DNA from: a virus
Length of the DNA: 42,360 nt
Direction: 5' to 3' (one strand)
Virus record (IMG/VR): IMGVR_UViG_3300048930_000353
Span: 1-42,360 of that record
The notes below the pieces were generated by a model. It saw only the letters and a program-made list of their open reading frames with translations, searched no databases and was not told the DNA's origin. This document shows positions 3,716 to 22,525 of the stretch, one piece after another; within the stretch, counting starts at the first letter, position 1; the number at the start of each line of letters is the position of its first letter. A program made the translations under genes and the position numbers.

Positions 3716-4053
3716 CTGAGTTGCTCATCCAGGGAGACACCGGCCTGGGCGAACTGACGGCGGATCCATTCCGCGTCGATGCCACACACCTCTGCCTCAT
3801 AGATCCGGCCCTGCAGGTGCCGGCACGCTTTGTGGCGGTAGCTGCGCAGGAACAGGTCAACAACGGTTTGCTGAAAAATTGCGCGCATCAATGCGCCCTC
3901 TGGCACTCGTGGAAACTGGTACCCGATCTTGCGGGCCACGGCCATCGCTGCGGGCCGCTGTTGCAGGATGCTGTCGGCGGCCTTTTCGAGGTGCGGGTTG
4001 CGCGTCGGTGGTTGTGGCACGCGCTGCTGCGCGCGCTGTAAGTTGTGTCTCAC
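3712..4053 (-). CDS. Hypothetical basic protein, 113 aa
   Basis: The start is GTG at 4053, overlapping the stop of the ParB-like gene (GTGA), which implies translational coupling. The protein is rich in Arg and Gln at the N-terminus and largely alpha-helical, with no membrane segment. The C-terminal part (YEAEVCGIDAEWIRRQFAQA) looks like a small globular helical domain. Function unknown. Confidence 0.75.
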   Translation of the reverse strand: MRHNLQRAQQRVPQPPTRNPHLEKAADSILQQRPAAMAVARKIGYQFPRVPEGALMRAIFQQTVVDLFLRSYRHKACRHLQGRIYEAEVCGIDAEWIRRQFAQAGVSLDEQLR

Positions 4054-6011
4054 AGTGGTTTAAACCCCGCTGGTACCCAGTCGATCGCTTCTGCGCGCTT
4101 TTCGGCGGACATGGTTTTGTCCTCACCGGCGAGGATGATTTCCAGATCCTGGGCAAGCTGCTTTTTCGTGCGCTTATCGGCACCTTCGGCGTGCCAGGGC
4201 GTGAAAAACTGTTCGCCCAGTTGCAGCAACGTGTCCTTGCTGACGCGGCCCAGGTAATTCTCTGCGGTGGGTTGGAAGTATTTGTGCCAGGGGATATCGA
4301 GTGTGGCCAAGGCGACTTCTGCCTCAGCGGAGTAACTGCTGTCAGCCAGCCCGCCGCAGAGCGATTGCGCTACGCAGTAGGCCATGAGTGCCTGTTTTTC
4401 CTGCAAACTGAGCTGAGTGAACGCGCGGAATCGTTCAGTGGCGTCAACGATATACAGCCAGCTCTCGCGTAGCTCCTGCTTTCGATACGCTTCCAGCTCC
4501 TGGAGCGCGCGGCCGGTGTCTGGCTTTTTCAGGGTTGCTGCAGGGTGCGTCTCCCGGATGTTGATGTCCAGCGGCGAGCCATAGTAGTGCGTTTTGAAGG
4601 TCTTCATGGCCAGCGTGTAGTACAGCAGATCGCGGGCTACATCCTCACCGCCGATCGCGAGGAAGCGCTTGGCAATGTTCAGGCGATAGGTGGTGAGGTC
4701 ATCGTTCAGCGCCTGGCTGAGATCGGGGCTGTCGTCGCGTTCATTCGCGCTCTGGCGTGAGTCGCTGCCCTTGCTGGTGCTGCTAGAACCGGCATTGCTG
4801 GATGGTGCCTGCAGGGCGCGCAGCGCGCTTTCTTCGCTCTTGCGCACAAGGCCAGCGTCGATGTGTGGCTTGCCATCGTGGCCGATGGTGACGATGCAGC
4901 CTGCCAGTGCCATTTCCTCGGCATTGAAGTCGTAGCTTAGTTCGATCTTTTCTGCAATCTCATCCAGCTGCGCTTCGAGGCGAGTGTAATGCTCTCGGTG
5001 CTTAGCGTTCCAATCATCTTCGCTCAGCTCCTGTTCCAGGTCTTCGAGTTGGCCGAGCTTTTCGGTGATGCTGGTTTCCTGTGCTTCCAGCTTCAATGTC
5101 TCCGGCCCTTTGTAGGGTGTGATCCGCTTCATGCCGGATGTATCTTTCTGGTCGATGCTGATTTCTGTCCAGTTCCAGCCCTCCAGTTTGGCGGCGGCTT
5201 TCTCAAGCTTTGCGATGGCGAGCTGGACCAACAGTTCGCGATCCTCGAAGTAGGTGACTTCCTTGAAAAGATCTGTGCTTACCGCGCCGCCGGCTTTGGT
5301 GTAGGCTTTCTCGCCGACGAACCTGCCAAGTCGGGTTGAGCTAGTTTCGGTCTCACCGCGTAGAGCATTGCGGATGTGCCATGCGTTGAGTTGGTTAACC
5401 CCTTTTAGATTGTTGAATACCTCAATCTGGCGGGCGTGGTCGTCCTCAACCGTGAATGCCATCACCTCCTCGAGAACGATCTCATCATTGCGATACGCCT
5501 TGATAATCTCCAGAGCCACCTGCGCGAGTTTCAGGCGCTTTTTCACGGTACTTTCGGGGATGCCCAGGGCGGCCGCTATCGTCTCGGTTCCGTTGCCCTG
5601 CTTGTGCATCTTCAGGCAAGCCTGGAATTCGTCAGCGGGGTGCATGCGCACGCGCTGGGTATTTTCGATCAGGCTGATTTCCTCGGCATTGGCTGAGTCT
5701 TGAAGCCACTGGCAGCTCACCATATCCGTTGCCTGGTAGTGCCCTTCCTTCACCAGCGCCTGCAGCGCTTTCAAGCGGCGCGTACCGGCAACGACTTCAT
5801 AGATGCCCGGCTTGCCGTTCTGGATCACAACCAGGTTCTGTAGCAGGCCCACCTCGCGGATCCCCGCGATCAGCTCCGCGTCGGCCTCTTTGTCCGGTTT
5901 GCTCTTGCGCACGTTGCGCGGGCTCGGTATGAGGTTGCGGATTTGCACTTCGATAATCATAGAGCCGAGCGGCGTGGGGATTTGCTCAACAACAGTATTG
6001 CTTTTTGGCAT
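4050..6011 (-). CDS. ParB/Spo0J-like protein with long C-terminal extension
   Basis: This 653-residue protein has an N-terminal ParB domain with both nucleotide-site signatures of the family: AGTRRLKAL (residues 75-83) and ENTQR (116-120). A helix-turn-helix lies around 142-165 (TIAAALGIPESTVKKRL). ParB proteins bind centromere-like sites and act as CTP-gated DNA clamps. Here about 400 further residues follow, with charged helices and a Ser-rich linker near residue 400. No ParA ATPase is encoded in the window, so simple plasmid partition is unlikely; a role in early DNA metabolism or regulation is inferred. The gene is co-transcribed with the early operon. Confidence 0.85.
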   Translation of the reverse strand: MPKSNTVVEQIPTPLGSMIIEVQIRNLIPSPRNVRKSKPDKEADAELIAGIREVGLLQNLVVIQNGKPGIYEVVAGTRRLKALQALVKEGHYQATDMVSCQWLQDSANAEEISLIENTQRVRMHPADEFQACLKMHKQGNGTETIAAALGIPESTVKKRLKLAQVALEIIKAYRNDEIVLEEVMAFTVEDDHARQIEVFNNLKGVNQLNAWHIRNALRGETETSSTRLGRFVGEKAYTKAGGAVSTDLFKEVTYFEDRELLVQLAIAKLEKAAAKLEGWNWTEISIDQKDTSGMKRITPYKGPETLKLEAQETSITEKLGQLEDLEQELSEDDWNAKHREHYTRLEAQLDEIAEKIELSYDFNAEEMALAGCIVTIGHDGKPHIDAGLVRKSEESALRALQAPSSNAGSSSTSKGSDSRQSANERDDSPDLSQALNDDLTTYRLNIAKRFLAIGGEDVARDLLYYTLAMKTFKTHYYGSPLDINIRETHPAATLKKPDTGRALQELEAYRKQELRESWLYIVDATERFRAFTQLSLQEKQALMAYCVAQSLCGGLADSSYSAEAEVALATLDIPWHKYFQPTAENYLGRVSKDTLLQLGEQFFTPWHAEGADKRTKKQLAQDLEIILAGEDKTMSAEKRAEAIDWVPAGFKPL

Positions 6012-7030: not shown

Positions 7031-7357
7031 TCACTGGTCAGCCGGTTTCTGCTTTTCTCGCGCCAGTTCATCCGCGATTTCCTGCAGGAACGCGATGCCC
7101 AGGTAAGTGGCGAGCACCTTGGGGCAGGGCCTGTACTCGCATCTGTTCGGGTCCCACCACGAGTGCGGGCGCACGACGAAGAGGCCCTCCTTCTGCAGAT
7201 TGCGGTGCGGTATGTTGCGGCCGTCCAGACCAAGGCGAGAGAAGTGCCCCTTCTCGCGCAGGCGCTCGTACAGCTTCGGCAAGCCGCAGCCGACGTGCTT
7301 CGCGGCATCTTTCATGCTCCACAGCTGCTGCTCAGTGGTAGTGGGCGAGGCTTGCAT
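7031..7357 (-). CDS. KilAC-domain antirepressor-like protein, 108 aa
   Basis: The start ATG (7357) is preceded by GGAGGT at good spacing. The middle of the protein (MKDAAKHVGCGLPKLYERLR, then a GHFSR...NIPHRN...GLFVV pattern) fits the KilAC/ANT C-terminal DNA-binding domain of phage antirepressors. It occurs here without the usual N-terminal Ant/Bro domain. Such proteins counter the lysogenic repressor or regulate early genes. Position in the PL operon fits that role, but the target is not shown. Confidence 0.75.
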   Translation of the reverse strand: MQASPTTTEQQLWSMKDAAKHVGCGLPKLYERLREKGHFSRLGLDGRNIPHRNLQKEGLFVVRPHSWWDPNRCEYRPCPKVLATYLGIAFLQEIADELAREKQKPADQ

Positions 7358-7550
7358 AGTGGGTGACCTCCTGCCTGTCGCAGGGCGACCAGGGTTCGTC
7401 GGGTGAGTGCCCGGGTGCGATCCGGTGCACTGATGCTGTTGCGTGCTCGCGCTCTGCATGGGCGTGGTGCTCCTTGAGTTCGGATACGTCGTCCTTCAGG
7501 GTGGCGACGATTTCCAGGATGGTGGTGATATCGGCCTGTGCTGATTTCAT
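7332..7550 (-). CDS. Small helical protein, 72 aa
   Basis: The start ATG (7550) overlaps the preceding stop (ATGA), and the 3' end overlaps the start region of the KilAC gene. Residues 1-40 (ILEIVATLKDDVSELKEHHA) form an amphipathic, coiled-coil-like helix; the rest is His/Pro-rich and probably disordered. Function unknown. Confidence 0.6.
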   Translation of the reverse strand: MKSAQADITTILEIVATLKDDVSELKEHHAHAEREHATASVHRIAPGHSPDEPWSPCDRQEVTHYASLAHYH

Positions 7551-8074: not shown

Positions 8075-8103
8075 ACGATACAAATATGTATTTGCAATGT
8101 CAA
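8075..8103 (-). promoter_or_regulatory. PL early leftward promoter
   Basis: Read on the minus strand, a perfect -35 TTGACA (8103-8098), a 17-base spacer and a -10 TATCGT (8080-8075) point at the leftward operon. The two operator sites at 8078-8091 and 8103-8116 overlap the -10/spacer and the upstream edge of the -35, as expected for a repressor-controlled promoter. Confidence 0.8.
8078..8091. promoter_or_regulatory. Operator site 1 (ATACA-N4-TGTAT)
   Basis: The sequence ATACAAATATGTAT has inverted half-sites ATACA/TGTAT. It covers the -10 side of PL. The same consensus occurs at 8103-8116, 9957-9970, 9998-10011 and 10020-10033. Confidence 0.75.
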
Positions 8104-8116
8104 TACATAAATGTAT
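8103..8116. promoter_or_regulatory. Operator site 2 (ATACA-N4-TGTAT)
   Basis: The sequence ATACATAAATGTAT is a dyad with perfect half-sites, 25 bases from site 1. It touches the PL -35 and lies within the region expected to drive the rightward BRCT gene (a TTGCAA-N16-TATTTT candidate at 8092-8119). Confidence 0.75.
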
Positions 8117-8173
8117 TTTTAGAATTAAAGCAATTGTGCTGTGCTTCTGAGGCGAACCTACGGAGGAGGATTT

Positions 8174-9067
8174 ATGTCGCATATCCTGGACAGTCACGGC
8201 CAGCCGCTGCATCAGGGCTTCAATAGGAAGCGCAACATTGAAAAGGCGGCAAGCGGCTTGATGGGTATCCTTCGAGGCCTCACTGCCGACGCGCGCATTA
8301 CTGAACAGGAAGCGTTATTCCTGGACGTGTGGCTGCGAAATCAAACCTTTCTGCAGGATGACGGTGATCTCGTGGATATCATTGATCTGGTAAGCGATAT
8401 TTTGAAAGACAATGTCGTCACGCGATCCGAGCTGGAGGACCTGCAGGCGTTGCTCTCCGACATTGTCGCCTTTCGTGATGATGGCTACATCAATTCAGAA
8501 GCAAAAGTAAATGAGCTGATCGGTTTGATCTCTGGCGTCGCTGCGGATGGGTGTTTAAGCGACTCCGAAATCGAATGTATTGTTAAGTGGCTGGATGATC
8601 ATTCGCAGTTCCTTGAGGAATGGCCAGTAAGTGTCGTGAAGCGACGTATCATGCAAGTTTTGGAGGATGGTGTGATCACTGAGTCTGAGCGCGTGGACAT
8701 GCTCGACACTATCCGGCAGATCACTGGGTATACGTTCGAAGAAACGTCTATTGCAGAAGGCAAGTCGACTGAGTTTCTGGAAGATCCGATAAGTAGTTTG
8801 GTGTTCGAGGATATGCGGTTTTGCTTTACCGGGAAGTTTGTATCCGGTGGCCGTGCTACGCAGGAATTGTCGGTGCAATTACGCGGCGGTATTCCTGTTA
8901 AAAAAATCACCAGCGAGGTGAACTATCTGATCATAGGTGCTTTAGCAAGTAGGGACTGGCGATTCAGCAGCCATGGTAGAAAAATCGAGGAGGCGCTTCG
9001 GTTGCGGCAATCCGGTGTTGTTATTAACGTCCTTACTGAGCGAACCTGGTTGAACTTTTTGGGGTGA
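8174..9067 (+). CDS. TerB-like duplicated repeats plus C-terminal BRCT domain
   Basis: This 297-residue protein starts at 8174 behind a strong GGAGGAGG site. Residues about 30-190 are helical and acidic. They contain two related repeats (LTADARITEQEALFLDVWL at about 36-54 and VAADGCLSDSEIECIVKWL at about 122-140) resembling TerB-type domains. Residues about 212-295 form a BRCT domain of the bacterial DNA-ligase type (FCFTGKF...YLIIG...TWLNFL). BRCT domains bind protein partners or DNA ends/nicks. The gene runs against its neighbours between PL and the repressor, a slot often used for lysogeny-expressed functions. Its job is unknown. Confidence 0.85.
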   Translation: MSHILDSHGQPLHQGFNRKRNIEKAASGLMGILRGLTADARITEQEALFLDVWLRNQTFLQDDGDLVDIIDLVSDILKDNVVTRSELEDLQALLSDIVAFRDDGYINSEAKVNELIGLISGVAADGCLSDSEIECIVKWLDDHSQFLEEWPVSVVKRRIMQVLEDGVITESERVDMLDTIRQITGYTFEETSIAEGKSTEFLEDPISSLVFEDMRFCFTGKFVSGGRATQELSVQLRGGIPVKKITSEVNYLIIGALASRDWRFSSHGRKIEEALRLRQSGVVINVLTERTWLNFLG

Positions 9068-9100: not shown

Positions 9101-9123
9101 AAAAAAGCCCGCGCAAGGCGGGC
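9101..9123 (-). terminator. Rho-independent terminator of the repressor transcript
   Basis: Read leftward, the stem GCCCGC (9123-9118), a five-base loop and GCGGGC (9112-9107) precede six T (9106-9101). It would end transcription coming from the repressor gene and lies convergent to the 3' end of the BRCT gene. Confidence 0.75.
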
Positions 9124-9328: not shown

Positions 9329-9475
9329 ATGAACACTGCTGATGATCAACAACAAGAAATCAGGGCGCAAATACTATTGAAAATTTACATGACGCTGGAT
9401 GATGCAGACAAAGTCAATATGATGTCTGATGTTCATCGCTTGCTGGAATGTCGAGAAGCGCCGCCTGAGCAATAG
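9329..9475 (+). CDS. 48-residue helical protein, convergent with the repressor
   Basis: The ATG at 9329 has AAGGA upstream, and a perfect -10 hexamer TATAAT (9271-9276) lies about 50 bases before it, although no good -35 is seen. The peptide (EIRAQILLKIYMTLDDADKV in its middle) looks like two amphipathic helices. Its last 62 bases are antisense to the repressor 3' end. Function unknown; a longer version from 9206 is possible but reads through the promoter-like AT-rich segment. Confidence 0.5.
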   Translation: MNTADDQQQEIRAQILLKIYMTLDDADKVNMMSDVHRLLECREAPPEQ

Positions 9476-9980
9476 CAATGCGATCTTGCGGGGGCAGTAG
9501 CGGCATGTAGGTGAGTACCAGGCTGACGAATTCTGTGTGGCTGATGCGTCGCAACAGGGGCAGTATATCGGCTGCAGACAGGGCCGAACTTGAAGAATAG
9601 GATACGCTCGCGTCCTTAGTGACTGACGGTATTTTGCTGTGACCGTCGCTTTCTAAAATGCCCTGCAGCGCGGCTTCAAGAGCTGACCTGGGTTGCTGTT
9701 TTTTGGCGATAAATTGTTGCACGGCGTTTGGGTCAAGGATCTGGCTTGCTGTGAGCCCGAAGTACTGCGCGATGCCTTCCAGGATGCCTATCCCCGGATT
9801 TCTAGTTTGGCCGGAACAGATACGGTGAATGTTCACCTGGCTGATCCGTCCGCCAGAATCTAATTCTACTCGCTGGGGCGATACCCCTTTCCATTCCAAA
9901 AGCAAAGGAATGGTCTGCGTGAGCGGAAGCCCCTCGATCACTTTGTATGTGCTCTTATACATTTCTGTATGTTGATTCAT
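9414..9980 (-). CDS. CI-like lysogeny repressor (HTH, no peptidase domain)
   Basis: The first 80-90 residues of this 188-residue protein contain an XRE-type helix-turn-helix (GGRISQVNIHRICSGQTRNP). A Ser-rich linker and a helical C-terminal region follow. No S24/LexA autoprotease domain (Ser-Lys dyad) is visible, so induction would not be by the usual RecA-stimulated self-cleavage. It is divergent from a Cro-like gene and flanked by dyad operators, the arrangement of an immunity region. The start at 9980 lacks a ribosome-binding site; Met7 (9962) is an alternative. One operator lies inside this 5' end. Confidence 0.8.
   Translation of the reverse strand: MNQHTEMYKSTYKVIEGLPLTQTIPLLLEWKGVSPQRVELDSGGRISQVNIHRICSGQTRNPGIGILEGIAQYFGLTASQILDPNAVQQFIAKKQQPRSALEAALQGILESDGHSKIPSVTKDASVSYSSSSALSAADILPLLRRISHTEFVSLVLTYMPLLPPQDRIAIAQAALLDIPASDEHQTSY
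9957..9970. promoter_or_regulatory. Operator site 5 (ATACA-N4-TGTAT) at the repressor start
   Basis: The sequence ATACATTTCTGTAT has perfect half-sites and lies across the first codons of the repressor. Binding here could block the repressor's own transcription, as an autoregulatory site would. Confidence 0.6.
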
Positions 9981-9997
9981 GTCGAATAAAATAAAAA

Positions 9998-10011
9998 ATG
10001 CATATATGCAT
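9998..10011. promoter_or_regulatory. Operator site 3 (ATGCA-N4-TGCAT)
   Basis: This is the core of a perfect 16-base palindrome (AATGCATATATGCATT, 9997-10012) midway between the repressor and cro starts, 22 bases from site 4. It ends on the first base of the probable PR -35. Confidence 0.75.
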
Positions 10012-10039
10012 TGAATAAACTACAAATATGTATTACCGT
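10011..10039 (+). promoter_or_regulatory. PR candidate promoter for cro
   Basis: TTGAAT (10011-10016), a 17-base spacer and TACCGT (10034-10039) mirror the PL layout relative to the operators. The predicted transcript would start within a few bases of the cro ATG (10047), and no ribosome-binding site precedes that ATG, so the message may be leaderless. Confidence 0.5.
10020..10033. promoter_or_regulatory. Operator site 4 (CTACA-N4-TGTAT)
   Basis: The sequence CTACAAATATGTAT has one mismatch to the consensus in the left half and the same centre (AATA) as site 1. It lies in the PR spacer just before the -10. Confidence 0.65.
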
Positions 10040-10046
10040 CGGCCGC

Positions 10047-10250
10047 ATGATCACTTTACAAGAAATGACCAGCGCACTGCTCGATAGCGGTATGACGGAG
10101 GCACAGCTGGCCGAGGCTGTCAAAACTAGCCAGGCAACCGTCCACCGCATACGTCGCGGAACCACTCCTGATCCCGGGTATTCGTTGGGTAAGCGCATTG
10201 AGGCGATATACGAGTCGGTGCGGCGTGAGCTTGCAGTCGGCGCTGAATGA
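10047..10250 (+). CDS. Cro-like HTH repressor, 67 aa
   Basis: A compact helix-turn-helix protein (MTEAQLAEAVKTSQATVHRI at about residues 14-33), divergent from the CI-like gene. Cro-type proteins bind the same operators as the repressor and favour lytic growth. The ATG at 10047 is chosen because the upstream in-frame ATG lies inside the operator/promoter region. It lacks a ribosome-binding site. Confidence 0.8.
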   Translation: MITLQEMTSALLDSGMTEAQLAEAVKTSQATVHRIRRGTTPDPGYSLGKRIEAIYESVRRELAVGAE

Positions 10251-10679: not shown

Positions 10680-11147
10680 ATGGACCAACTAGACCACGCA
10701 ATACACAACACAGCTCACAAATCCAGCAAGACACCTGAGGAGATCGCTCGGGCGATCAGTGTTGGTCACCAGATACTGCTTAACAAAGTCAGCCCCACAA
10801 ATGACCGCAACAAGCTCACGCTGCGTGAGGCGGTGGCGATGATTATCTGCACTGGCAACACCGAAATGGTGAGTGTGATTGCCGATATCGCTGGTGGAGA
10901 GTTCGTGCCGCGCGGTGGCGATGCAACGCCGTCGGTGATGTCCGGCGTGCTCACTGTTGTGTCGGAGCAGGGCGACGTGACGCGCGCGATTGAGTGCGCG
11001 CTCGCAGATGGCAGGATCAGCTCGCGTGAGGGCAATCGCATAATCCAGGAGATCGACCAGGCCATGAGTGCGCTGCGGCTGCTGAGGAAAGCGGTGGGCG
11101 ATGTGGTGCAGGGGAAGGTTGTGGATTTAAGTGCGGGGCGGGGATGA
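10680..11147 (+). CDS. Phage CII-type regulatory protein (CP76 family)
   Basis: This 155-residue protein matches the layout of the P2-type CII / CP76 regulator family. It has an N-terminal segment containing ISVGHQILLNKVSPTNDRNK, a helical middle (LTLREAVAMIICTGNTEMVS) and a C-terminal helix. These proteins take part in the lysogeny/lysis decision and activate or stabilise lysogenic transcription in some phages. The ATG follows AAAGAGG. Position after cro and before the replication gene fits. Family assignment is by sequence pattern only. Confidence 0.75.
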   Translation: MDQLDHAIHNTAHKSSKTPEEIARAISVGHQILLNKVSPTNDRNKLTLREAVAMIICTGNTEMVSVIADIAGGEFVPRGGDATPSVMSGVLTVVSEQGDVTRAIECALADGRISSREGNRIIQEIDQAMSALRLLRKAVGDVVQGKVVDLSAGRG

Positions 11148-13839: not shown

Positions 13840-14391
13840 ATGGGTCAGATCGTTAACAAACAACAGCTCGCCGCGGTACTCGGGAAGTCGGAGCGCGCAT
13901 TGACCGAGTGGCAGAAGGAGGCCGGCTTTCCGATCAAGTCCAAGTCCGCGCGTGGCGGCTCGAACCAGTACGACACCGAGGCCGTAATCGAGTGGATGAT
14001 TCAGCGCGCTGTCGGTGGCGCCGAAAAAGAATCCAGCGGTGACAGGTTGAATCGCATCCGCGCGGACCGCGAGGAGCTCAACCTGGCAAAGGATATCGGC
14101 GAGTTGATCCCGGCAAACGAAACTAAGGAGGCGCTGTACCAGGTCACTACCGCAATCCGCACAAATTTCCTGTCGGGAAATAGCAAGCTCAAGCACGAGC
14201 TGGATACGCTGTACGACATCAACCTGGATATATCGATCCTGCATGACCATTCTCGAAACCTGCTCACCCATCTATCAGAGATTGCGGGCGAATCTGAGGA
14301 CGGTGATACAGACTGGTTTGAAAGGATTTGTACCGCCACCCCAAATGTCATCGACGGATTGGGCGAACAAGTACCGTTGGTTGGCGGCTGA
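13840..14391 (+). CDS. terS: Terminase small subunit (Nu1-like)
   Basis: The N-terminus of this 183-residue protein has a winged-helix/MerR-like DNA-binding segment of the Nu1 type (VNKQQLAAVLGKSERALTEW, then GGSNQYDTEAVIEW). A helical linker (DRLNRIRADREELNLAKDIG) follows and a C-terminal part binds the large subunit. Nu1 proteins recognise cos DNA and start packaging. The last 149 bases overlap the large-subunit gene in another frame. Confidence 0.85.
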   Translation: MGQIVNKQQLAAVLGKSERALTEWQKEAGFPIKSKSARGGSNQYDTEAVIEWMIQRAVGGAEKESSGDRLNRIRADREELNLAKDIGELIPANETKEALYQVTTAIRTNFLSGNSKLKHELDTLYDINLDISILHDHSRNLLTHLSEIAGESEDGDTDWFERICTATPNVIDGLGEQVPLVGG

Positions 14392-16315
14392 ACAGAGCGC
14401 GCACGCGGGCAAGTACAGCACCGCACTGACACCCTGGGTGCCAGGGATGTTGGATGCGCTGGACGATCCGAAGATCCGCGAGGTGGTTTGCCAGAAGTCG
14501 GCGCAGGTAGCCTGGACAGACGGCGTCCTCAACAACTACCTGGGCAGGCGCATGCACCTGGACCCATGCCCGGTGGTGATGCTGTTCCCGAAGGACGCGA
14601 CTATCAAACGCTACCTCCGGCAGAAGCTGACGCCGATGATTCGTGTCACGCCGGTGCTGCGCGGCCTGATCGATATCACTGCCAGCCGCTCGAGCACCAA
14701 CACGCAGGACTATAAAGAATTTCCCGGCGGGTTCCTGGCGCTGGTCGGCTCCAACTCACCCGATAACGTCAAGACGATATCGGCACCGGTGGGCGCGGTG
14801 GAGGAGCCCGACGACTGCTCGACCGACACCAAAGGCCAGGGAGACTCAGTCGAACTGCTGCGCGAGCGGCTGAAAACGTACGAGAACAGCAAGCTGATCT
14901 TCGGCGGCACGCCGACAATCAAGGATCACTCTCGCGTAGAGACCGCGTTCCAGGCTTCGGATCAGCGTCACTTCTGGGTGCCGTGTCACCAGTGCGGTAA
15001 GCCGCACGTGCTGACTTGGGACAACGTGATCTGGGATGAGGATCCACGAGTCAACGATGAAGTACTCGGGCACGCGGTGCTGGATTCAGCGCGCTACGTG
15101 TGCCCGCATTGCGGTGTGCTCTGGACTGATCGCGATAAAAACCTGAACGTTCGGCGAGGTTATTGGGTGAATAATCGACCGACCAGGGAGGTGGCCGGCT
15201 TCGCGATCAACGAGCTTTACAGCCCGTTCCCTGGCTCGAAGCTGGCGAAGCTTGTCGAAAAGCACCTCAAGGCACAGTACAAAAAAGAGCGCGGCGACGA
15301 ATCCGCGATGATCACCTTCACCAACAACACGTTGGGCCTGGCATATGAGTACCAGGACGGCTCGATCGACGCGGAGGCGCTGAGCGGCAAAGCGGAGGAG
15401 TACTCCGAACTGATCGTGCCGCGCGGAGGCCTCGCCCTGGCGCTGGCGATCGACGTGCAGCCTGATCGCCTGGCGTTGATCATCCGCGCGTACGGACGTG
15501 AGGAGGAATCCTGGCTGGTGTACTGGGGCGAGATCCACGCGAAGGTTGGCGTGACCGATACGACGGACCCGGTGTGGGCAGAGTTGGACAAGGTCCTGTT
15601 CGGCTCTTACCGACATGCCGACGGTTACGTGTTGAGCATCACAGTCGCGGCGATCGACTCAAGCGACGGCAACACAAATGACGCGGTCTACCACTACGTG
15701 CGCACGCGTAGAGGAAAAGGACCGAAGCTGATGGCGATCAAGGGCTCGAAAGAGATCGACCAGGAGATCGTGCGCACGCCGAAGAAAGTCGACGTTGACA
15801 GCACCAGCAAGGCGGCACGGTTCGGCTTGGAAGTCTGGCACATCGGTGTAAATCGCGCGAAGGATCTGATTGCTGAGCGCCTGAAATTGTCCGGCGTCGG
15901 GCCCGGCCGCATGCACTTTTACGACGGCGTGCGCAGCGACTACCCGGATCAAATGACGGGCGAGTCCAAGATCCCGAGCCGCACGCAGCGCAACAAAAAG
16001 GTGTGGACTCGGAAGGCGGGTCGTCCTGTCGAGGCGTGGGATTGCGAGGTTTACAACCTGTTCTGCGCGCGGCAGCAGCGCTGGCACATCCGCAACGCGG
16101 GTGCCTGGGATGATCTGGAAGGCAAGCTCAAGCAGGGCGATCTGCTCAGTAACGGCGGTGAAGTCGGGGTTGTCGACTACATCGACGGACGGCCGAATCG
16201 CGGTGATGTGCAGGACGCGGAGCCAGCTGGGCAGGTGAGGCAACCACAAACACAGGCGCAACAAACTGCAGCAGCCCGGTCCATGGCGGATCTTGGGCGG
16301 CGCAATAGAGGGTGA
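14243..16315 (+). CDS. terL: Terminase large subunit (lambda gpA-like)
   Basis: This 690-residue DNA-packaging ATPase/nuclease belongs to the gpA family. The ATPase region contains the P-loop-like QKSAQVAWTDG (about residue 86) and the acidic EEPDDC motif, followed by the clade-typical GQGDS and LRERLKTYE. A zinc-ribbon-like CHQC...CPHC lies near residues 250-290. The nuclease half contains AIDVQPDRL and IDSSDGNTND. The N-terminus aligns in layout with lambda gpA, which supports the early start even though it overlaps terS by 149 bases without a clear ribosome-binding site. Confidence 0.9.
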   Translation: MTILETCSPIYQRLRANLRTVIQTGLKGFVPPPQMSSTDWANKYRWLAAEQSAHAGKYSTALTPWVPGMLDALDDPKIREVVCQKSAQVAWTDGVLNNYLGRRMHLDPCPVVMLFPKDATIKRYLRQKLTPMIRVTPVLRGLIDITASRSSTNTQDYKEFPGGFLALVGSNSPDNVKTISAPVGAVEEPDDCSTDTKGQGDSVELLRERLKTYENSKLIFGGTPTIKDHSRVETAFQASDQRHFWVPCHQCGKPHVLTWDNVIWDEDPRVNDEVLGHAVLDSARYVCPHCGVLWTDRDKNLNVRRGYWVNNRPTREVAGFAINELYSPFPGSKLAKLVEKHLKAQYKKERGDESAMITFTNNTLGLAYEYQDGSIDAEALSGKAEEYSELIVPRGGLALALAIDVQPDRLALIIRAYGREEESWLVYWGEIHAKVGVTDTTDPVWAELDKVLFGSYRHADGYVLSITVAAIDSSDGNTNDAVYHYVRTRRGKGPKLMAIKGSKEIDQEIVRTPKKVDVDSTSKAARFGLEVWHIGVNRAKDLIAERLKLSGVGPGRMHFYDGVRSDYPDQMTGESKIPSRTQRNKKVWTRKAGRPVEAWDCEVYNLFCARQQRWHIRNAGAWDDLEGKLKQGDLLSNGGEVGVVDYIDGRPNRGDVQDAEPAGQVRQPQTQAQQTAAARSMADLGRRNRG

Positions 16316-16317
16316 GC

Positions 16318-16524
16318 ATGGCAACACAAACACAGCTGGATGAGGCACGCACCGCACGGCACGCGCTCATCACCGGCCAGAAGATGGTCAGTATCACCAT
16401 GCATGGCCGCCAGACTACGTTCAGCGAGGCGAACAAGCGCGACCTCGACAACTATATCGCGGAACTTGAATCGCGCCTGGGTGTCGACAGCGGTCGCCGT
16501 AGTCGGCCGGCGCGGGTGCGCTGA
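16318..16524 (+). CDS. gpW-like head-tail joining protein
   Basis: A 68-residue protein between terminase and portal genes, as gpW in lambda. It contains the typical helix-hairpin-helix layout: an N-terminal helix (TQLDEARTARHALITGQKMV), a beta hairpin (SITMHGRQTTF) and a C-terminal helix. The ATG at 16318 is preferred over GTG 16312 because GAGG lies at good spacing. Its stop overlaps the portal start. Confidence 0.85.
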   Translation: MATQTQLDEARTARHALITGQKMVSITMHGRQTTFSEANKRDLDNYIAELESRLGVDSGRRSRPARVR

Positions 16525-18113
16525 TGCGCAGCAGAGTAATCATCAATCCGCGATCCGGCAAACCGTTCGCGGACTCGAACGCGTACAGCGGTGCCGGCCC
16601 GGGTTTCGCGGGGCAACTGCGCGACTGGACGCCACGGGCGCGTATGGCCGATGCCGCACTACTGCCGACGCTGCACCAGGGAAACGCGCGCGCGGATGAC
16701 CTGGCACGCAACCACGGCATCGCGTCAAGCGGCGTGCAGCTGCACATCGACCACATCGTCGGGCATCTTTTCCGCCTTAGCTACAAGCCACGTTGGCGGC
16801 GGCTTGGCATTCGCGAGGAGGAGGCGAGGGCGTTCGCTCGCGACGTCGAAGCGGTCTGGATGGAGATCGCAGAGGACCCCGTAGGCTGTTGGCTGGACGC
16901 TGAACGCAAGCGCACGTTCACCATGCTGATTCGTGAGGGCATCGGTACGCACACGCGCCTGGGTGAGATCATGGCGACAGCAGAGTGGATCGATGATCGC
17001 CCCGCCAGCGCGCCGTTGAAAACGGCTATCAAAGTCGTCAGCCCGTACCGCGTGAGTAATCCGCCAGCGATCAGCAAACGCGATTCGTTGCGCGAGGGTG
17101 TGCAGGTTGATCGCTACGGTGCGGCCACTGGGTACTGGGTGCGCAACACCAGCAGCACCACCAGCGGATTCGGTAGTAGTGGCATGGATGACAAGTGGGT
17201 ATTCGTTCCACGTGAAACTGAGTGGGGTCGCCCGCGCTTCATCCACGTGTTCGAGCCTACCGACGACGGCCAGACGCGCGGTAAGAATCAATTCCTGGCG
17301 GTGATGCAGCAGCTCAAAATGTTGTCGAAGCTGCAGGACACGGCACTGCAGAACGCTATCGTCAATGCGATGTACGCGGCAGTAATCGAAAGCGAGCTCG
17401 ATTCCAACGCCGCGATGCAGGTCATCGGCGGCGAAGGTGGCACGCAGCAGCTGCAGAGCCTGTTGACGTTGATGCTCGATTATCACGACGGTGCCGACAT
17501 CCGCATGGACGGCGTGAAGATCCCGCACCTGGTCCCCGGTGAGCGGCTGAACCTGCTGACCAGCAAGAACTCGGACAACGGCTTCTCCGATCTGGAGCGC
17601 GCGTTCCTGCGCTACACCGCTGCAGGATTAAACGTCAGCTATGAACAGCTCTCGCGCGATTACAGCAACGCCAGTTATACCAGTGCCCAGGCTGGAAAGA
17701 TGGAAACCTGGCGCTACATGATGGGGCGTCGAAAAGTCATTGCGAGTCGTGAGGCTGGCATGATCTTTTCGCTCGTGCTGGAGGAACTCCTGCAGCAGCG
17801 AGTGCTACGCCTGCCACGCGGCGCGCGATTCGATTTCTACCAGGCAAAGGCAGCCTGGTGCGCTGCGGAGTGGATTGGATCTGGACGCCTTGCGATAGAT
17901 GGATTGAAGGACGTTAAGGAAGCGGTCATGCGCATTGAAGCCGGGCTGTCGACTTACGAGAAAGAGGCTGCGCTCATGGGTGAGGATTACCAGGAGCTAT
18001 TCGACCAGCAGGTGCGTGAGGCTTCCGAACGCAAGGCTGCAGGTCTGCCACCGCCCAGCTGGGCCGCCACACAAGCACTTGCGCCCGATGACGCGCCGGA
18101 TGCGAACCAATAA
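16524..18113 (+). CDS. Portal protein (lambda gpB-like)
   Basis: This 529-residue protein forms the dodecameric portal in the capsid vertex. It carries family features such as the N-terminal DADLARNHGIA-like stretch (residues about 58-70), the central crown region and YSNASYTSAQAGKMETWRYM near residue 375. Length and position fit lambda-type portals. A terminator-like hairpin follows directly. Confidence 0.9.
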   Translation: MRSRVIINPRSGKPFADSNAYSGAGPGFAGQLRDWTPRARMADAALLPTLHQGNARADDLARNHGIASSGVQLHIDHIVGHLFRLSYKPRWRRLGIREEEARAFARDVEAVWMEIAEDPVGCWLDAERKRTFTMLIREGIGTHTRLGEIMATAEWIDDRPASAPLKTAIKVVSPYRVSNPPAISKRDSLREGVQVDRYGAATGYWVRNTSSTTSGFGSSGMDDKWVFVPRETEWGRPRFIHVFEPTDDGQTRGKNQFLAVMQQLKMLSKLQDTALQNAIVNAMYAAVIESELDSNAAMQVIGGEGGTQQLQSLLTLMLDYHDGADIRMDGVKIPHLVPGERLNLLTSKNSDNGFSDLERAFLRYTAAGLNVSYEQLSRDYSNASYTSAQAGKMETWRYMMGRRKVIASREAGMIFSLVLEELLQQRVLRLPRGARFDFYQAKAAWCAAEWIGSGRLAIDGLKDVKEAVMRIEAGLSTYEKEAALMGEDYQELFDQQVREASERKAAGLPPPSWAATQALAPDDAPDANQ

Positions 18114-18115
18114 CA

Positions 18116-18137
18116 CCCCGCCCCGGCGGGGTTTTTT
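18116..18137 (+). terminator. Terminator-like hairpin inside the late operon
   Basis: CCCCGCC (18116-18122), two C and GGCGGGG (18125-18131) are followed by six T. It lies between the portal and protease genes, so an antiterminating late regulator would be needed for full downstream expression, or it moderates the level. Confidence 0.65.
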
Positions 18138-18154
18138 ATGCATTGGAGATTGAT

Positions 18155-19507
18155 ATGACCCTGGACCAAATTGTCATGCGGCTGGTGCATCGCCCATTGC
18201 TGATGGATCTCGCGCACGCTCGCCGACTGTTCAGCTCGCTGGCCGGGAAAATGAATATCGCGCATCTCTCGGACGCCCAGGGTGAAGTCGCGCTGGGCGA
18301 AAAAATGCGCATCAAAAGCATGGCAGGTATCGGAGGTGAAGGGTCGGACAGATACCGCCCTTATCGCCTGGTGGATGGCATCGCGGTCGTGCCGGTGACG
18401 GGAACGCTGTTGCACCGGTATCAGTGGATCGACAGTTGGGCGACAGGCTATGACGCCGTGGTGCGCATGGTGGAGCTCGCGGTAGAGGACCCAGACGTGG
18501 ACGGCATTCTGCTCGATATCGACAGTCCCGGTGGTGAGGCTGCCGGCTGTTTCGACGCAGCCCGCCAGTTGCGCGCGCTGGGCGAAAAGAAGCCGCTGGC
18601 CTCGCTGTGCAACGACATGACGCTAAGCGGTGCCATGGCACTGGCGAGTGCGGCAGAACATCGCTACATCACCAGCACCGGTGAGGCCGGTTCCGTCGGT
18701 GTCGCAATGGCGCACTGGTCCTATGAAGACATGATCAAAAACGACGGTGTGGAAGTTACGCTGATCTACGCCGGCGAGCACAAGGTCGACGGCAATATGT
18801 ACCAGCACCTACCTGAAGCGGTGTACACGCGCTTCAAGAATGAATGTCAGGACCTGCGCCAGGAGTTCGCCGCGATTGTCGGTGAGCACGTCGGCGTGAG
18901 TCTTGATTCCGTATTGGCAACCGAGGCGGCGATCTATCGCGGCCAGGCGGCCATAGACGTCGGCTTCGCGAATGAGCTGGTAAACAGCCACGCCGCGATC
19001 TCGGCATTTCGAAACTACCTGTCCCCCGGGGATGGGTCGGCAAATGAAGGTACAGCTATGACGAACAAGACAGGCACCACGGCTGCGAAGCCGAGCAACA
19101 ACGCCGAGTCGGCCGCCGGGGAGCAAAACCAACAGCAACCCACTGGCGACTCTCAACTCACTGCGCAGGCTTCCGCTTCTGATGAGCGGGCGCGCATCAA
19201 GGGAATCACGACCTGCGAGGCGGCAAAAGGTCGCGAGACGCTGGCAAATCATCTTGCGTTCGACACGACGTTGTCTGTCGAGGACGCGGTGAAAATTCTC
19301 GAGAAGTCGGAGATGACAGCAACGCTGGAATCAACCGACGACACGCCCGGTGCTTTCGGTCGTGCCATGCAGGCGCACGCCAGTAGTGGTGTTGAGGCTG
19401 GCGGCGAGGGCGATAGTGCCGCCGGTGCCGGCAATGCCAATACGCCGGCCGCAACAGCTGCTCGCATTGCGGGCGGCTACAACCGCATGAAGGGTCGCGG
19501 CGCGTAG
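18155..19507 (+). CDS. S49-family head maturation protease with C-terminal scaffold region (gpC-like)
   Basis: A 450-residue protein; ATG 18155 has GGAG six bases upstream. Residues about 60-300 form an S49/SppA-like protease. The nucleophile is probably S158 in TLSGAMALASAA and the base K210 in GEHKVDG, a Ser-Lys spacing of 52 residues as I recall for lambda gpC. The C-terminal 150 residues are Gln/Ala/Gly-rich and helical and act as scaffold; an internal start produces this part separately. It processes the procapsid during head assembly. Confidence 0.9.
   Translation: MTLDQIVMRLVHRPLLMDLAHARRLFSSLAGKMNIAHLSDAQGEVALGEKMRIKSMAGIGGEGSDRYRPYRLVDGIAVVPVTGTLLHRYQWIDSWATGYDAVVRMVELAVEDPDVDGILLDIDSPGGEAAGCFDAARQLRALGEKKPLASLCNDMTLSGAMALASAAEHRYITSTGEAGSVGVAMAHWSYEDMIKNDGVEVTLIYAGEHKVDGNMYQHLPEAVYTRFKNECQDLRQEFAAIVGEHVGVSLDSVLATEAAIYRGQAAIDVGFANELVNSHAAISAFRNYLSPGDGSANEGTAMTNKTGTTAAKPSNNAESAAGEQNQQQPTGDSQLTAQASASDERARIKGITTCEAAKGRETLANHLAFDTTLSVEDAVKILEKSEMTATLESTDDTPGAFGRAMQAHASSGVEAGGEGDSAAGAGNANTPAATAARIAGGYNRMKGRGA
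19058..19507 (+). CDS. Nested scaffold protein (Nu3-like), in frame within the protease gene
   Basis: An in-frame ATG at 19058 has GAAGG seven bases upstream and begins 149 codons corresponding to the helical, low-complexity C-terminal part (MTNKTGTTAAKPSNNAESAA). In lambda, Nu3 is made the same way from inside gene C. Expression is inferred from the ribosome-binding site and family precedent. Confidence 0.7.
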   Translation: MTNKTGTTAAKPSNNAESAAGEQNQQQPTGDSQLTAQASASDERARIKGITTCEAAKGRETLANHLAFDTTLSVEDAVKILEKSEMTATLESTDDTPGAFGRAMQAHASSGVEAGGEGDSAAGAGNANTPAATAARIAGGYNRMKGRGA

Positions 19508-19570
19508 CGCTGCTTTACATCGGCATCAAGAAACGGCGAAAGCCACTTTTAAATCACTGAGGATATCACC

Positions 19571-19933
19571 ATGGATTTAGCAAATTCACGGGAGGAAACG
19601 TTCGCGCCCTCCAACATCATCGCCGGTAGTGCACCGGTAATCACCGCTCGCGAAATGATTGCGACCACGCAAACCATTCCGCAGTACGCACCGTTGGGAC
19701 GCATCACTGCATCCGGTCTGGTTATCGAATCGATCCAGTCAGCATCGGACGGTTCGCAGATCCCGATCGGTATCGCAGTGCACGCAATTGACACCACCGG
19801 CGGGGCTGCGCGTCACCCGGTGTACAAGGGCGGGCAATTCAACGCGGCGCTCATCGACTGGGATGCGTCTTGGTCTGCAGCGGAGAAAGCAGGCGCTTTC
19901 GATCGCACGCCAATCGACCTGGTCACCCTGTAG
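19571..19933 (+). CDS. Head decoration protein (gpD-like)
   Basis: This 120-residue protein matches the gpD family in length and features, including EETFAPSNIIAGSAPVIT near the N-terminus and IPIGIAVHAIDTT in the middle. gpD trimers bind the expanded capsid surface and stabilise it. It sits between protease/scaffold and the major capsid gene, as in lambda. Confidence 0.9.
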   Translation: MDLANSREETFAPSNIIAGSAPVITAREMIATTQTIPQYAPLGRITASGLVIESIQSASDGSQIPIGIAVHAIDTTGGAARHPVYKGGQFNAALIDWDASWSAAEKAGAFDRTPIDLVTL

Positions 19934-19996
19934 TAGGGCAGGCCTTCATTAACAATCAACACACTCACAACACTCACACACTGAAGGAATTTAGTT

Positions 19997-21013
19997 ATGA
20001 ATATGTACGATACCGTGACGCTGCTTGCAGTCATCACTCAGTTGATCAAGTTCGACCCGTTCCTGCTCAATCTGTTTTTCCCCAATGTGGTCGAGTTCAA
20101 CACGCGAGAAATCGCGCTGGACAAGATCGCAAAAAACCTGAAGCTTGCCCCCTTCGTCTCCCCGATGGTGGCCGGCAAGGCGCGTACCAGCGACGGTTAT
20201 AAAACAACTGCATTTATTCCGGCGTATCTCAAGCCGAAGGCGGTGGTTGATCCCAGTCGAGTTCTGCGGCGCGTTGCGGGTGAGCAACTCGGTGGCGCGC
20301 TATCCAATGAATCGCGGCGCGACATGATCATCGCCGACATCCTGATGGAAAATGCATTGATGATCGCGGGGCGGCTTGAGTGGATGGCGGCTCAGGCGTT
20401 GCTGACTGGCAAGGTAATCGTCAGCGGCGAAGACTATCCCACGCAGGAAGTTGATTTCGGCCGCACAGGTACCCTTACGAAAACGCTGACCGGTAGCGCG
20501 CGTTGGGGTCAAAGTGGCGTCAAGCCGCTGGACGATATCGAAACCTGGGCCGCGCAGTTGGAAGCGCCAGTGACAGATATCGTTATGGATGGCAAGGCCT
20601 GGACGAAGTTCCGGAAAGATGATGATGTCAAAGCCGCTCTTGATACACGGCGTGGCTCACGCACCGAGCTGGAAACAGCCCCCGATCCTGGGCGGAATTA
20701 CAGCTATAAGGGCAAGCTTGGGTCTGACATTGACGTGTGGGTTTACAACGGTGTCTACACCGACGACGCAGGTGCGACACAAAAGTTCATGCCGGACAAC
20801 CGCGTCATTATGGGCAGCCCTGCTCTTGAAGGCCACCGTGCGTTCGGCGCGATCCTGTCGCCCAGTGCGGGCTACCAGGCAATGGAGAGCTTTCCGCGCC
20901 ATTTCATTTCCCAGGACCCTGAAGTGGAATACGTGGAAACGCAATCAGCGCCGCTGATTATCCCTGGCCGTCCGAACGCATCCATCGCAATCAACGTCGA
21001 CAGCGGCAGCTGA
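19997..21013 (+). CDS. Major capsid protein (gpE-like)
   Basis: This 338-residue protein has the HK97-type coat fold of the lambda gpE family. Recognisable are FFPNVVEFNTREIALDKI near residue 30, VVDPSRVLRRVAGE in the middle and the C-terminal AIINVDSG-like end. ATG 19997 follows AAGGAATT. It is the principal shell protein. Confidence 0.92.
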   Translation: MNMYDTVTLLAVITQLIKFDPFLLNLFFPNVVEFNTREIALDKIAKNLKLAPFVSPMVAGKARTSDGYKTTAFIPAYLKPKAVVDPSRVLRRVAGEQLGGALSNESRRDMIIADILMENALMIAGRLEWMAAQALLTGKVIVSGEDYPTQEVDFGRTGTLTKTLTGSARWGQSGVKPLDDIETWAAQLEAPVTDIVMDGKAWTKFRKDDDVKAALDTRRGSRTELETAPDPGRNYSYKGKLGSDIDVWVYNGVYTDDAGATQKFMPDNRVIMGSPALEGHRAFGAILSPSAGYQAMESFPRHFISQDPEVEYVETQSAPLIIPGRPNASIAINVDSGS

Positions 21014-21103
21014 TCGATCCTCGCCTTGATGTAAAGGTCTGTACTGTGGGCCCGGCCGGGTGACTGGTCGGGCCCTTGTCATTTTCTTTTAGAGGATACG
21101 TAT

Positions 21104-21577
21104 ATGAGTAAGAAATCGAGCGCGCGGGGATTATTGAATTCTTTGGTGATGTTGGTGGCCGTGCATGAAATCGCGCGGTCACTTGAAAGAAGGCCTATCG
21201 CTCCAGGCGAGCCATTTCAGGTGGAGGAAGCCGAGGCTTTGGCACTGGTCGGATGTGGCGCGGCCAAGTACTTCGCGGAGTCTGCCGACAGCCAGTTTGG
21301 CGAGAGTAGCGGTGGTACCGGTAATGGCAATGCTGGCGATCCTGCTGGAGGTTCCGGCGATGGCTCCGGTGCTGGTGGCGATGGCTCCGGTGCTGGTGGT
21401 GCTGGCGATGGCTCCGGTGATGGTGGCGAAGGCGATGGCTCCGGTGATGGTGGCGATGGCTCCGGTGCTGGTGGTGCTGGCGATGGCTCCGGTGATGGTG
21501 GCGAAGGCGATGGCTCCGGTGCTGGTGGCGAAGGCGATGGCTCCGGTGCTGGTGGCGAAGGCACTGATGGACATTGA
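21104..21577 (+). CDS. Gly/Asp/Ser-repeat head protein at the FI position
   Basis: The first 65 residues of this 157-residue protein look globular (an FQVEEAEALALVGCGAAKYF module like small head-tail proteins). The remaining 90 are Gly-rich repeats (GDGSGAGG, GDGSGDGGEG) from a tandem DNA repeat. Lambda FI in the same place is also partly low-complexity and aids packaging. The repeat tail is acidic and probably disordered. Its stop overlaps the next start. Confidence 0.75.
   Translation: MSKKSSARGLLNSLVMLVAVHEIARSLERRPIAPGEPFQVEEAEALALVGCGAAKYFAESADSQFGESSGGTGNGNAGDPAGGSGDGSGAGGDGSGAGGAGDGSGDGGEGDGSGDGGDGSGAGGAGDGSGDGGEGDGSGAGGEGDGSGAGGEGTDGH
21374..21523 (+). repeat. 75-bp tandem repeat encoding a 25-residue Gly/Asp/Ser unit
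   Basis: Two nearly identical 75-base units start at 21374 and 21449, nested in a longer run of GGCGATGGCTCCGGTG-type 15-24-base units spanning about 21349-21560. The period keeps the reading frame (25 codons). Confidence 0.85.
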
Positions 21578-21884
21578 TACGATCAACGCCGCGTCCTCGC
21601 TCTTGAGCTTCGACGTGGCGTCTATCGGCGCCACTGTAACGCACCCAGGCGGCGAGCCGATCGAGGCCCGCGCTATCGTAAACCGCGCTGCGGAAGTCCG
21701 CGACGAACGCGGTGTGTTTGTCGAGTCGCGCTGCGAGATCTCGCTGCTGATCAGCGAGACGGGTGCTGGCCAGCGTGGCACGGTTGTTGATACCGGCAAG
21801 CCCGGTGATTGTTGGGAACTGAAATCGCAGCTCTACAACGACGGCATTGAAACAGGCTGGACAGCGGGGCGGATGACGCAATGA
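21567..21884 (+). CDS. FII-like head-tail connector
   Basis: This 105-residue protein starts at ATG 21567 (GAAGG upstream), overlapping the repeat protein's stop. It is beta-rich (ISLLISETGAGQRGTVVDTG) with an N-terminal helix (MDIDTINAASSLLSFD), like lambda gpFII. The position between the FI-like and Z-like genes supports the assignment. gpFII joins head and tail. Confidence 0.7.
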   Translation: MDIDTINAASSLLSFDVASIGATVTHPGGEPIEARAIVNRAAEVRDERGVFVESRCEISLLISETGAGQRGTVVDTGKPGDCWELKSQLYNDGIETGWTAGRMTQ

Positions 21885-22525
21885 CCGACGACGCCGCAAT
21901 AGCAACCCTCCGAGGCTTCGCCGAAGCGCTCGAGCGCGCACCCTTCGCCGCGCTGGAAGCAGCATCAATCGCGCTCAATGAGGGCGCACAGCTCGCAGAG
22001 TCCCTGGGTCGCTCAACCATCCTGCAGCGGCTGAATCTGGATGCGCCTTACGTCCACAAGCATTTGCGGCTGGACAAAGAATCCACACGCACTGACCTGA
22101 TGGCCCGCGTGCGCGCTACAAAGCGCAGTGTATTAGCGCCGCGCTACGGCGCAGAAGTGGCAACGCAACCCGCTGTGTCCGTGGGCAGGAATTTTGAAAG
22201 GCTCAAGGGCGATCCCGGCAGGGGTATCCCCAAGGGCATGAAAGCCGCCGGCTCCTCGCCCTGGAGCGCACTCCGGAGCGGAGAAAAAAAGGCCTGGCGA
22301 AATGCATTTTTTATAAAGCTCAAGGGCTCCGGTGCGTGGGGCATGGTCGCGCGCATGGGACGTCAAGGCGGTCTCGACACAAAATCTGATTGGGACCAAA
22401 ACCTAAAGGTGGTGTTTGCGCTGAGCGTTGACCAGGCGTGGAAAGGCGTGCGCGATGAAGTCTCTCCGCAAGCAATGGAACACGCAAGCGCAGTATTTGA
22501 AAAAGAATTCGCAGGCCGACTATGA
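21881..22525 (+). CDS. Minor tail protein Z-like
   Basis: A 214-residue basic protein whose ATG overlaps the connector stop (ATGA). It shares the layout of lambda gpZ: an N-terminal helical part (LNEGAQLAESLGRSTILQRL), a basic middle and a conserved-looking end (WKGVRDEVSPQAMEHASAVF). gpZ is needed to join tails to heads or finish the tail's proximal end. Confidence 0.8.
   Translation: MTDDAAIATLRGFAEALERAPFAALEAASIALNEGAQLAESLGRSTILQRLNLDAPYVHKHLRLDKESTRTDLMARVRATKRSVLAPRYGAEVATQPAVSVGRNFERLKGDPGRGIPKGMKAAGSSPWSALRSGEKKAWRNAFFIKLKGSGAWGMVARMGRQGGLDTKSDWDQNLKVVFALSVDQAWKGVRDEVSPQAMEHASAVFEKEFAGRL

What the first reader, a model, noticed from the sequence alone, without database searches (positions are those of the whole stretch)
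8174..9067. TerB-like repeats fused to a BRCT domain in a lysogeny-expressed slot
Two related acidic helical repeats followed by a ligase-type BRCT are an unusual phage protein. It lies alone on the plus strand between PL and the repressor, where superinfection-exclusion or defence genes often sit. It could recognise DNA ends or nicks of invading phages or modulate host repair.
Basis: partly seen in the sequence, partly recalled or inferred. Interest (0 to 1): 0.7.

Follow-up and report, generated by a model that had tools for sequence, protein, structure and literature searches.

The report
Phage TerB-BRCT protein beside the repressor
A temperate phage carries, between an operator cluster and its repressor gene, an uncharacterised protein that combines two TerB-like helical repeats with a domain predicted to grip the 5' phosphate of broken or nicked DNA; relatives occupy the same slot in many prophages, some beside an ion-channel gene, so it is a good candidate for a sensor that helps a lysogen exclude other phages, but no function has been tested.

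Summary
Window 8174-9067 (+) encodes a 297-aa protein with two homologous acidic four-helix repeats and a C-terminal ligase/Rfc1-type BRCT (AlphaFold pLDDT 89.7). It belongs to PHROG 3989, function unknown. The BRCT keeps the Thr-Gly-Arg-Lys set (T219, G220, R227, K270) in 76 of 77 relatives; in yeast Rfc1 the corresponding set binds a DNA 5' phosphate. The TerB link is weak but beats controls.

The slot is real and conserved. In 26 of 34 representative two-repeat relatives a phage repressor lies beside or within three genes. In 19, the window included, the gene converges on the repressor, and operators precede it in the window and 17 of 18 enterobacterial loci. In Vibrio phage K139 it lies in the lysogenic cI-orf2-glo-int operon, at a site published as an antiviral hotspot. 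In E. coli e14-type prophages the slot is polymorphic and sometimes empty. Two-repeat relatives also pair with a Kv-type channel gene in three lineages, once in reversed order.

Best reading: an accessory DNA-end or nick sensor for exclusion, working like RexA (about 0.5). Caveats: the window gene is not on the repressor transcript, its only predicted promoter overlaps operators, no channel is adjacent, and nobody has tested the protein.

The parts
8174..9067 (+). TerB-like repeat x2 plus BRCT protein, 297 aa (PHROG 3989; homologue of Vibrio phage K139 Orf2)
8213..8480 (+). repeat 1 (about residues 14-102, helices 18-36, 44-55, 64-78, 84-100)
8495..8746 (+). repeat 2 (about residues 108-191); D125/E132 and D165/E172 near-invariant
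8795..9064 (+). BRCT domain (residues 208-297) with phosphate-pocket residues T219, G220, R227, K270
8161..8169 (+). Shine-Dalgarno GGAGGAGG before the ATG at 8174
8079..8092 (.). operator-like site OL-a, TACAAATATGTATT, identical to the site at 10021-10034
   Evidence: 10 hits in the window against 0.9 expected, all in two clusters
8104..8117 (.). operator-like site OL-b, TACATAAATGTATT
8075..8103 (-). candidate leftward promoter PL (TTGACA-17-TATCGT) overlapping OL-a
   Evidence: consensus match only
8097..8125 (+). candidate rightward promoter of the BRCT gene (ATGTCA-17-TAGAAT), OL-b in its spacer, OL-a just upstream
   Evidence: consensus match only
9107..9123 (-). terminator-like hairpin ending the repressor transcript before the BRCT gene
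9414..9980 (-). putative repressor with Cro/CI-type HTH, 188 aa, convergent with the BRCT gene
   Evidence: HTH hits below Pfam cut-off
9956..10034 (.). OR cluster: operator-like sites at 9956, 9999 and 10021
10011..10250 (+). putative Cro-like regulator
10680..11147 (+). CII-like regulator (Phage_CP76)
   Evidence: 7.8e-31

Best explanation
An accessory protein of the phage immunity region that probably senses broken, nicked or otherwise 5'-phosphate-exposing DNA and helps the lysogen exclude other phages, working like RexA. Shown: the predicted fold, the conserved phosphate pocket, the conserved slot, its polymorphism in E. coli prophages, and recurrent adjacency to a Kv-type channel gene. 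Inferred: the BRCT binds 5'-phosphorylated DNA ends or junctions such as those made during phage entry, replication or packaging; the acidic TerB-like repeats oligomerise or contact a partner; binding triggers an effector (a channel gene in some relatives, otherwise an unlinked or host partner) or directly hinders the invading genome. In this phage expression is probably tied to OL by an arrangement that mirrors PRM at OR.
For: Pocket T219/G220/R227/K270 conserved in 76 of 77, matching yeast Rfc1 T166/G167/R174/K209, which bind a DNA 5' phosphate (PMC9359705); T-to-R spacing is eight residues in both. Fold matches to LigA and Rfc1. Slot: repressor-linked in 26 of 34 two-repeat representatives. 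K139: cI-orf2-glo-int on the lysogenic transcript, glo annotated as involved in phage exclusion. The interval between cI and integrase of K139-like phages is a published antiviral hotspot holding systems such as RM, Septu and PARIS (PMC9122126). A K139-family prophage, 919TP, which carries this gene, is reported to reduce productive infection by KVP40, gene not mapped (PMC8706939). E. coli: the gene is in 45 of 5,426 genomes, while the same slot holds ymfI/ymfJ, other ORFs or nothing in related prophages. Kv-type channel with TVGYGD filter adjacent at 2, 25 and -8 bp in three lineages, once upstream rather than downstream, against about 1.4 Ion_trans matches per genome. Short forms beside complete Shango, DISARM DrmD, type I RM and Cas9 genes. 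TerB domains occur in Shango and Bunzi (PMC10952713).
Against: No test of DNA binding or phage exclusion exists. In the window there is no channel or other effector next to the gene. The channel also occupies the K139-type slot without the BRCT gene (L224), so pairing is optional. Neighbour counts were made on loci found by homology, without a matched background for defence genes. Several two-repeat relatives (L101, L102, L105, L106, L108, L261, L262) lie in chromosomal settings with no defence neighbour recognised. The window's candidate promoter overlaps an operator and may be repressed in the lysogen. No PADLOC family matches the protein.
Confidence: 0.5

Rival explanations
1. It modulates the lysogeny switch or the host SOS/repair response: by binding DNA breaks or RecA-loading junctions it stabilises the prophage, as 434 Hex does by blocking RecA-stimulated repressor cleavage.
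For: Location against the repressor and operators in many phages; Hex shows that a gene of the repressor transcript can act this way (PMC3564112); damaged DNA is what a 5'-phosphate-binding BRCT would meet in an SOS-induced lysogen (inference).
Against: Relatives occur outside prophages and beside channels, restriction genes and Shango, where there is no repressor to protect. The slot is empty or differently filled in related prophages.
Confidence: 0.22
2. It is a DNA-metabolism accessory of the phage, for example a ligase or nick-processing partner that helps circularise, protect or integrate phage DNA.
For: BRCT closest to LigA and Rfc1. Short-form relatives lie 12-13 bp downstream of ligA in two genomes. 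In K139 it is upstream of glo and int.
Against: No ligase, polymerase or nuclease catalytic domain in the protein. Not in the replication operon of the window, and absent from most e14-type prophages, so dispensable.
Confidence: 0.15
3. It counters host or satellite defences (protects the phage's own DNA ends during infection) rather than excluding other phages.
For: The candidate promoter is interleaved with operators beside PL, which would also fit early lytic expression.
Against: In K139 it is on the annotated lysogenic transcript; chromosomal relatives exist.
Confidence: 0.08

Closest known systems
Vibrio phage K139 Orf2 / Kappa kp3 ('BRCT domain-containing', 'putative NAD-dependent DNA ligase')
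   Same: Homologous over the full length (38% identity over 99%), same two repeats plus BRCT, next to the repressor
   Different: K139 gene lies on the cI transcript followed by glo and int; in the window it is on the opposite strand to the repressor and stands alone. No function reported in the papers available here.
Lambda RexA (RexAB exclusion)
   Same: Immunity-region location; presumed DNA sensor; some relatives adjacent to a membrane channel gene, as RexA is to RexB
   Different: No sequence or fold relationship was established; not on the repressor transcript in the window; no adjacent channel in the window; exclusion not tested
BRCT of Rfc1 (p140) and of LigA
   Same: Fold and the Thr-Gly-Arg-Lys phosphate site
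   Different: Fused to TerB-like repeats instead of clamp-loader or ligase domains
TerB family (PF05099), as in Shango and Bunzi
   Same: Paired helix-DGxIxxxE-helix units; weak profile and fold match
   Different: Below the Pfam cut-off; match not decisive; no Shango helicase or ATPase in the window's neighbourhood
434 Hex
   Same: Accessory gene in the immunity region
   Different: Hex lies on the repressor transcript; no homology was tested here

Membership tests
BRCT superfamily | beta-alpha-beta-beta-alpha-beta-alpha fold | tested here: met
   Model elements E215-219 H227-236 E240-242 E251-254 H266-279 E285-288 H289-296; Z 11.1 to LigA, 9.8 to Rfc1
BRCT superfamily | Curated sequence profile (PF00533) match | tested here: inconclusive
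   Window protein alone no hit; 54 of 77 relatives hit at E<=0.01; family profile hits Rfc1 and LigA in the PDB at 1e-7 to 1e-6
DNA-binding single BRCT (Rfc1/LigA type) | Thr-Gly, Arg, Lys phosphate-binding set | tested here: met
   T219, G220, R227, K270, each 76 of 77; role in Rfc1 from PMC9359705. Spacing and order compared; no atomic superposition was made
DNA-binding single BRCT (Rfc1/LigA type) | Binding of 5'-phosphorylated DNA | not testable with these tools
   needs EMSA or a structure
TerB (PF05099) | Pfam gathering score | tested here: not met
   No hit for the window; 3 of 77 relatives at E<=0.01
TerB (PF05099) | TerB fold | tested here: inconclusive
   2ou3 top by VIA, Z 6.4 over 136 aa, below the level that is convincing for helical bundles; hhalign 67%
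NAD-dependent DNA ligase | Adenylation, OB and HhH domains | tested here: not met
   297 aa, only the BRCT matches LigA
RexAB exclusion system | On the repressor transcript, downstream of cI | tested here: not met
   Opposite strand, with a terminator-like hairpin between; met in K139
RexAB exclusion system | Partner ion-channel gene | tested here: not met
   None next to the window gene; present in three lineages of relatives
RexAB exclusion system | Excludes other phages | not testable with these tools
   needs plaque assays
Known anti-phage families of PADLOC | Profile match | tested here: not met
   No hit at E<=10

The most novel reading that the evidence does not exclude
TerB-BRCT proteins are the sensor half of a new family of Rex-like exclusion systems: a 5'-phosphate-binding BRCT detects foreign DNA ends or replication intermediates and opens a cognate Kv-type channel, or acts through another partner where the gene stands alone as in the window.
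Probability: 0.22. Interest if true: 0.78.

Novelty: new variant of a known kind. Interest (0 to 1): 0.55.

Why it matters
The family is spread over K139-like vibriophages, enterobacterial prophages (45 E. coli genomes), Pseudomonas phages and many bacterial chromosomes, yet no tested function was found. If it senses DNA ends to exclude phages it would give a concrete, mutable trigger (a four-residue phosphate pocket) for Rex-type exclusion, whose exact mechanism of activation is still called unknown after 70 years (PMC12894663). If instead it protects the prophage switch or works with ligase, that too would explain a widespread orphan gene often misnamed 'DNA ligase'.

Tried and rejected
A ligase remnant: rejected, no ligase domain. 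Membership of PF05099: not reached. SOS/LexA control: CTGT-N8-ACAG sites occur at chance level. Similarity of repeat 2 to CII/YmfL regulators (8.6e-6 and 3.9e-5, about 30 residues): pairwise comparison with the window's own CII gave nothing, so it is treated as a short shared helical hairpin motif. A common partner gene upstream of the chromosomal long forms: the neighbours are unrelated. Linkage to ligA as a rule: only two cases, and the family is rare in Planctomycetota (3 of 199 genomes). Foldseek with the repeats alone gave no significant PDB match. A first TerB profile comparison was spoiled by wrongly oriented sequences and was redone. Relatives of the window's repressor: none found in viral contigs. 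Literature: no held paper describes a TerB-BRCT phage protein or a BRCT defence system; the two K139 papers most likely to mention Orf2 (PMC93736, PMC135448) are not held.

Full report
1. What is there. It encodes 297 aa. The protein falls in PHROG 3989 (unknown function) over its whole length at 8.9e-81 and is 38% identical to Orf2 of Vibrio phage K139. The sequence alone has no Pfam or PADLOC hit.

2. Anatomy. An AlphaFold2 model built on 77 relatives has mean pLDDT 89.7 and pTM 0.81: eight helices in two four-helix units (18-100, 108-191), then a BRCT fold. The two units are homologous to each other (hhalign 99.6%) and carry four D-x-x-[ILV]-[ST]-x-x-E motifs; D125, E132, D165 and E172 are near-invariant. 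A TerB relationship is supported by a profile comparison that beats shuffled and reversed controls and by the best PDB match (2ou3, TerB, Z 6.4), but falls below family cut-offs. 'TerB-like' is a fair description, 'TerB family member' is not established.

3. The BRCT. Residues 208-297 match LigA (Z 11.1) and Rfc1 (Z 9.8). T219, G220, R227 and K270 are each kept in 76 of 77 relatives. In the yeast Rfc1-DNA structure T166, G167, R174 and K209 bind a DNA 5' phosphate (PMC9359705). The correspondence rests on order, on equal T-to-R spacing, on the HMM alignment for T, G and R and on the fold match; K270 was not aligned atom by atom. Binding to DNA is therefore inferred.

4. Control region. TACAAATATGTATT-like sites occur in just two clusters, 8077-8117 and 9956-10034 (10 hits with up to 3 mismatches against 0.9 expected). 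These are the likely OL and OR. A leftward promoter match overlaps the first OL site; the only rightward match before the BRCT gene (8097-8125) has the second OL site in its spacer and the first just upstream of its -35. This is the geometry of PRM at OR (comparison from general knowledge of lambda), so the gene may be on or off in the lysogen depending on site occupancy; by the sequence it is not on the repressor transcript. The repressor (9414-9980, -) ends in a terminator-like hairpin at 9123-9107.

5. The slot in relatives. Two size classes exist: two repeats plus BRCT (about 290-305 aa) and one repeat plus BRCT (about 205-230 aa). Of 34 two-repeat representatives, 19 (window included) are convergent with an adjacent repressor, 5 lie directly downstream of one on the same strand and 2 more within three genes. 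In 18 enterobacterial loci of the convergent type, an operator-like palindrome lies 35-74 bp before the gene in 17, and such palindromes are about 20 times denser in the two control regions than elsewhere (5.4 against 0.24 per kb). Another convergent case was found in a Pseudomonadales-order contig (L266). K139 has cI-orf2-glo-int on a lysogenic transcript with an annotated start.

6. The slot is an accessory slot. E. coli prophages of the e14 type that carry the gene (45 of 5,426 genomes) have close relatives with ymfI/ymfJ (K-12), another ORF (UTI89), an ECs1072-family gene or nothing (KKa014) at the same place. The interval between cI and integrase in K139-like phages has been published as an antiviral hotspot (PMC9122126). 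A K139-family prophage, 919TP, is reported to reduce infection by KVP40, gene unknown (PMC8706939).

7. Partners. A Kv-type channel gene is 2 bp downstream in two related K139-like prophages (L013, L254), 25 bp downstream in a Porticoccus genome (L099) and overlaps by 8 bp upstream in another genome of the same order (L263). With 49 listed Ion_trans matches in 38 genomes and 44 two-repeat clusters at 90% identity, three independent adjacencies are far above a rough expectation of a few hundredths (my estimate, two neighbours per locus and about one such gene per 2,500); this was noticed after the fact. One related prophage has the channel without the BRCT gene (L224), so the pairing is optional. 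Short forms lie beside a complete Shango system (L008), DISARM DrmD (L145), type I HsdR (L154), Cas9 (L173), a UvrD-like helicase (L174) and, twice, ligA (L111, L152); others have ordinary neighbours. No matched background was computed for defence genes.

8. Interpretation. The simplest account of pocket, slot, polymorphism and channel pairing is an accessory DNA-end or nick sensor that helps a lysogen exclude other phages, comparable in logic to RexA, which sits downstream of cI and is thought to sense phage DNA intermediates and trigger RexB (PMC12894663). The window gene differs from Rex in strand and in having no adjacent effector, so it is 'works like', not 'is'. A Hex-like effect on the switch (PMC3564112) and a role in DNA joining remain open.

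9. Verdict. Observation confirmed; interpretation partly supported. The family has been annotated but is functionally an orphan in everything I could search.

Noticed in passing
L013, L254, L099, L263: Two-repeat TerB-BRCT genes directly adjacent to Kv-type channel genes (TVGYGD filter), in both gene orders; L224 has the channel alone in the same slot.
   Followed up: partly
L019, L224, L255: A three-gene cassette (300-390 aa, then a 110-136 aa STAS/DUF4325-like protein, then a 160-220 aa membrane-type protein) recurs in the repressor-integrase slot of Vibrio-type prophages, with or without TerB-BRCT.
   Followed up: no
L008 (Hymenobacter plasmid): Complete Shango SngABC followed 64 bp later by a short-form TerB-BRCT gene.
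   Followed up: yes
L111, L152: NAD-dependent DNA ligase LigA 12-13 bp upstream of a short-form TerB-BRCT gene.
   Followed up: yes
L003 (Sulfurimonas phage SNW-1) 5944-7001: Short-form TerB-BRCT annotated 'DNA polymerase', followed after 2 bp by a thermonuclease-family gene.
   Followed up: no
window 4050-6011 (-): 653-aa ParB-like protein (PHROG 7783, E 4.7e-65) in the leftward operon.
   Followed up: no
window 7031-7459 (-): KilAC/ANT antirepressor-like domain (Pfam 2.5e-7) early in the leftward operon.
   Followed up: no
window 14243-18113 (+): Lambda-type terminase and portal (PHROG 15 and 21); nearest named phage is Marinobacter phage PS3, about 66% DNA identity over 44% of 14001-21900.
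   Followed up: partly
window 8636-8725 (residues 155-184): Weak similarity of the last helix pair of repeat 2 to CII-like and YmfL regulators (PHROG 101, 8.6e-6; NCBIfam YmfL, 3.9e-5).
   Followed up: partly
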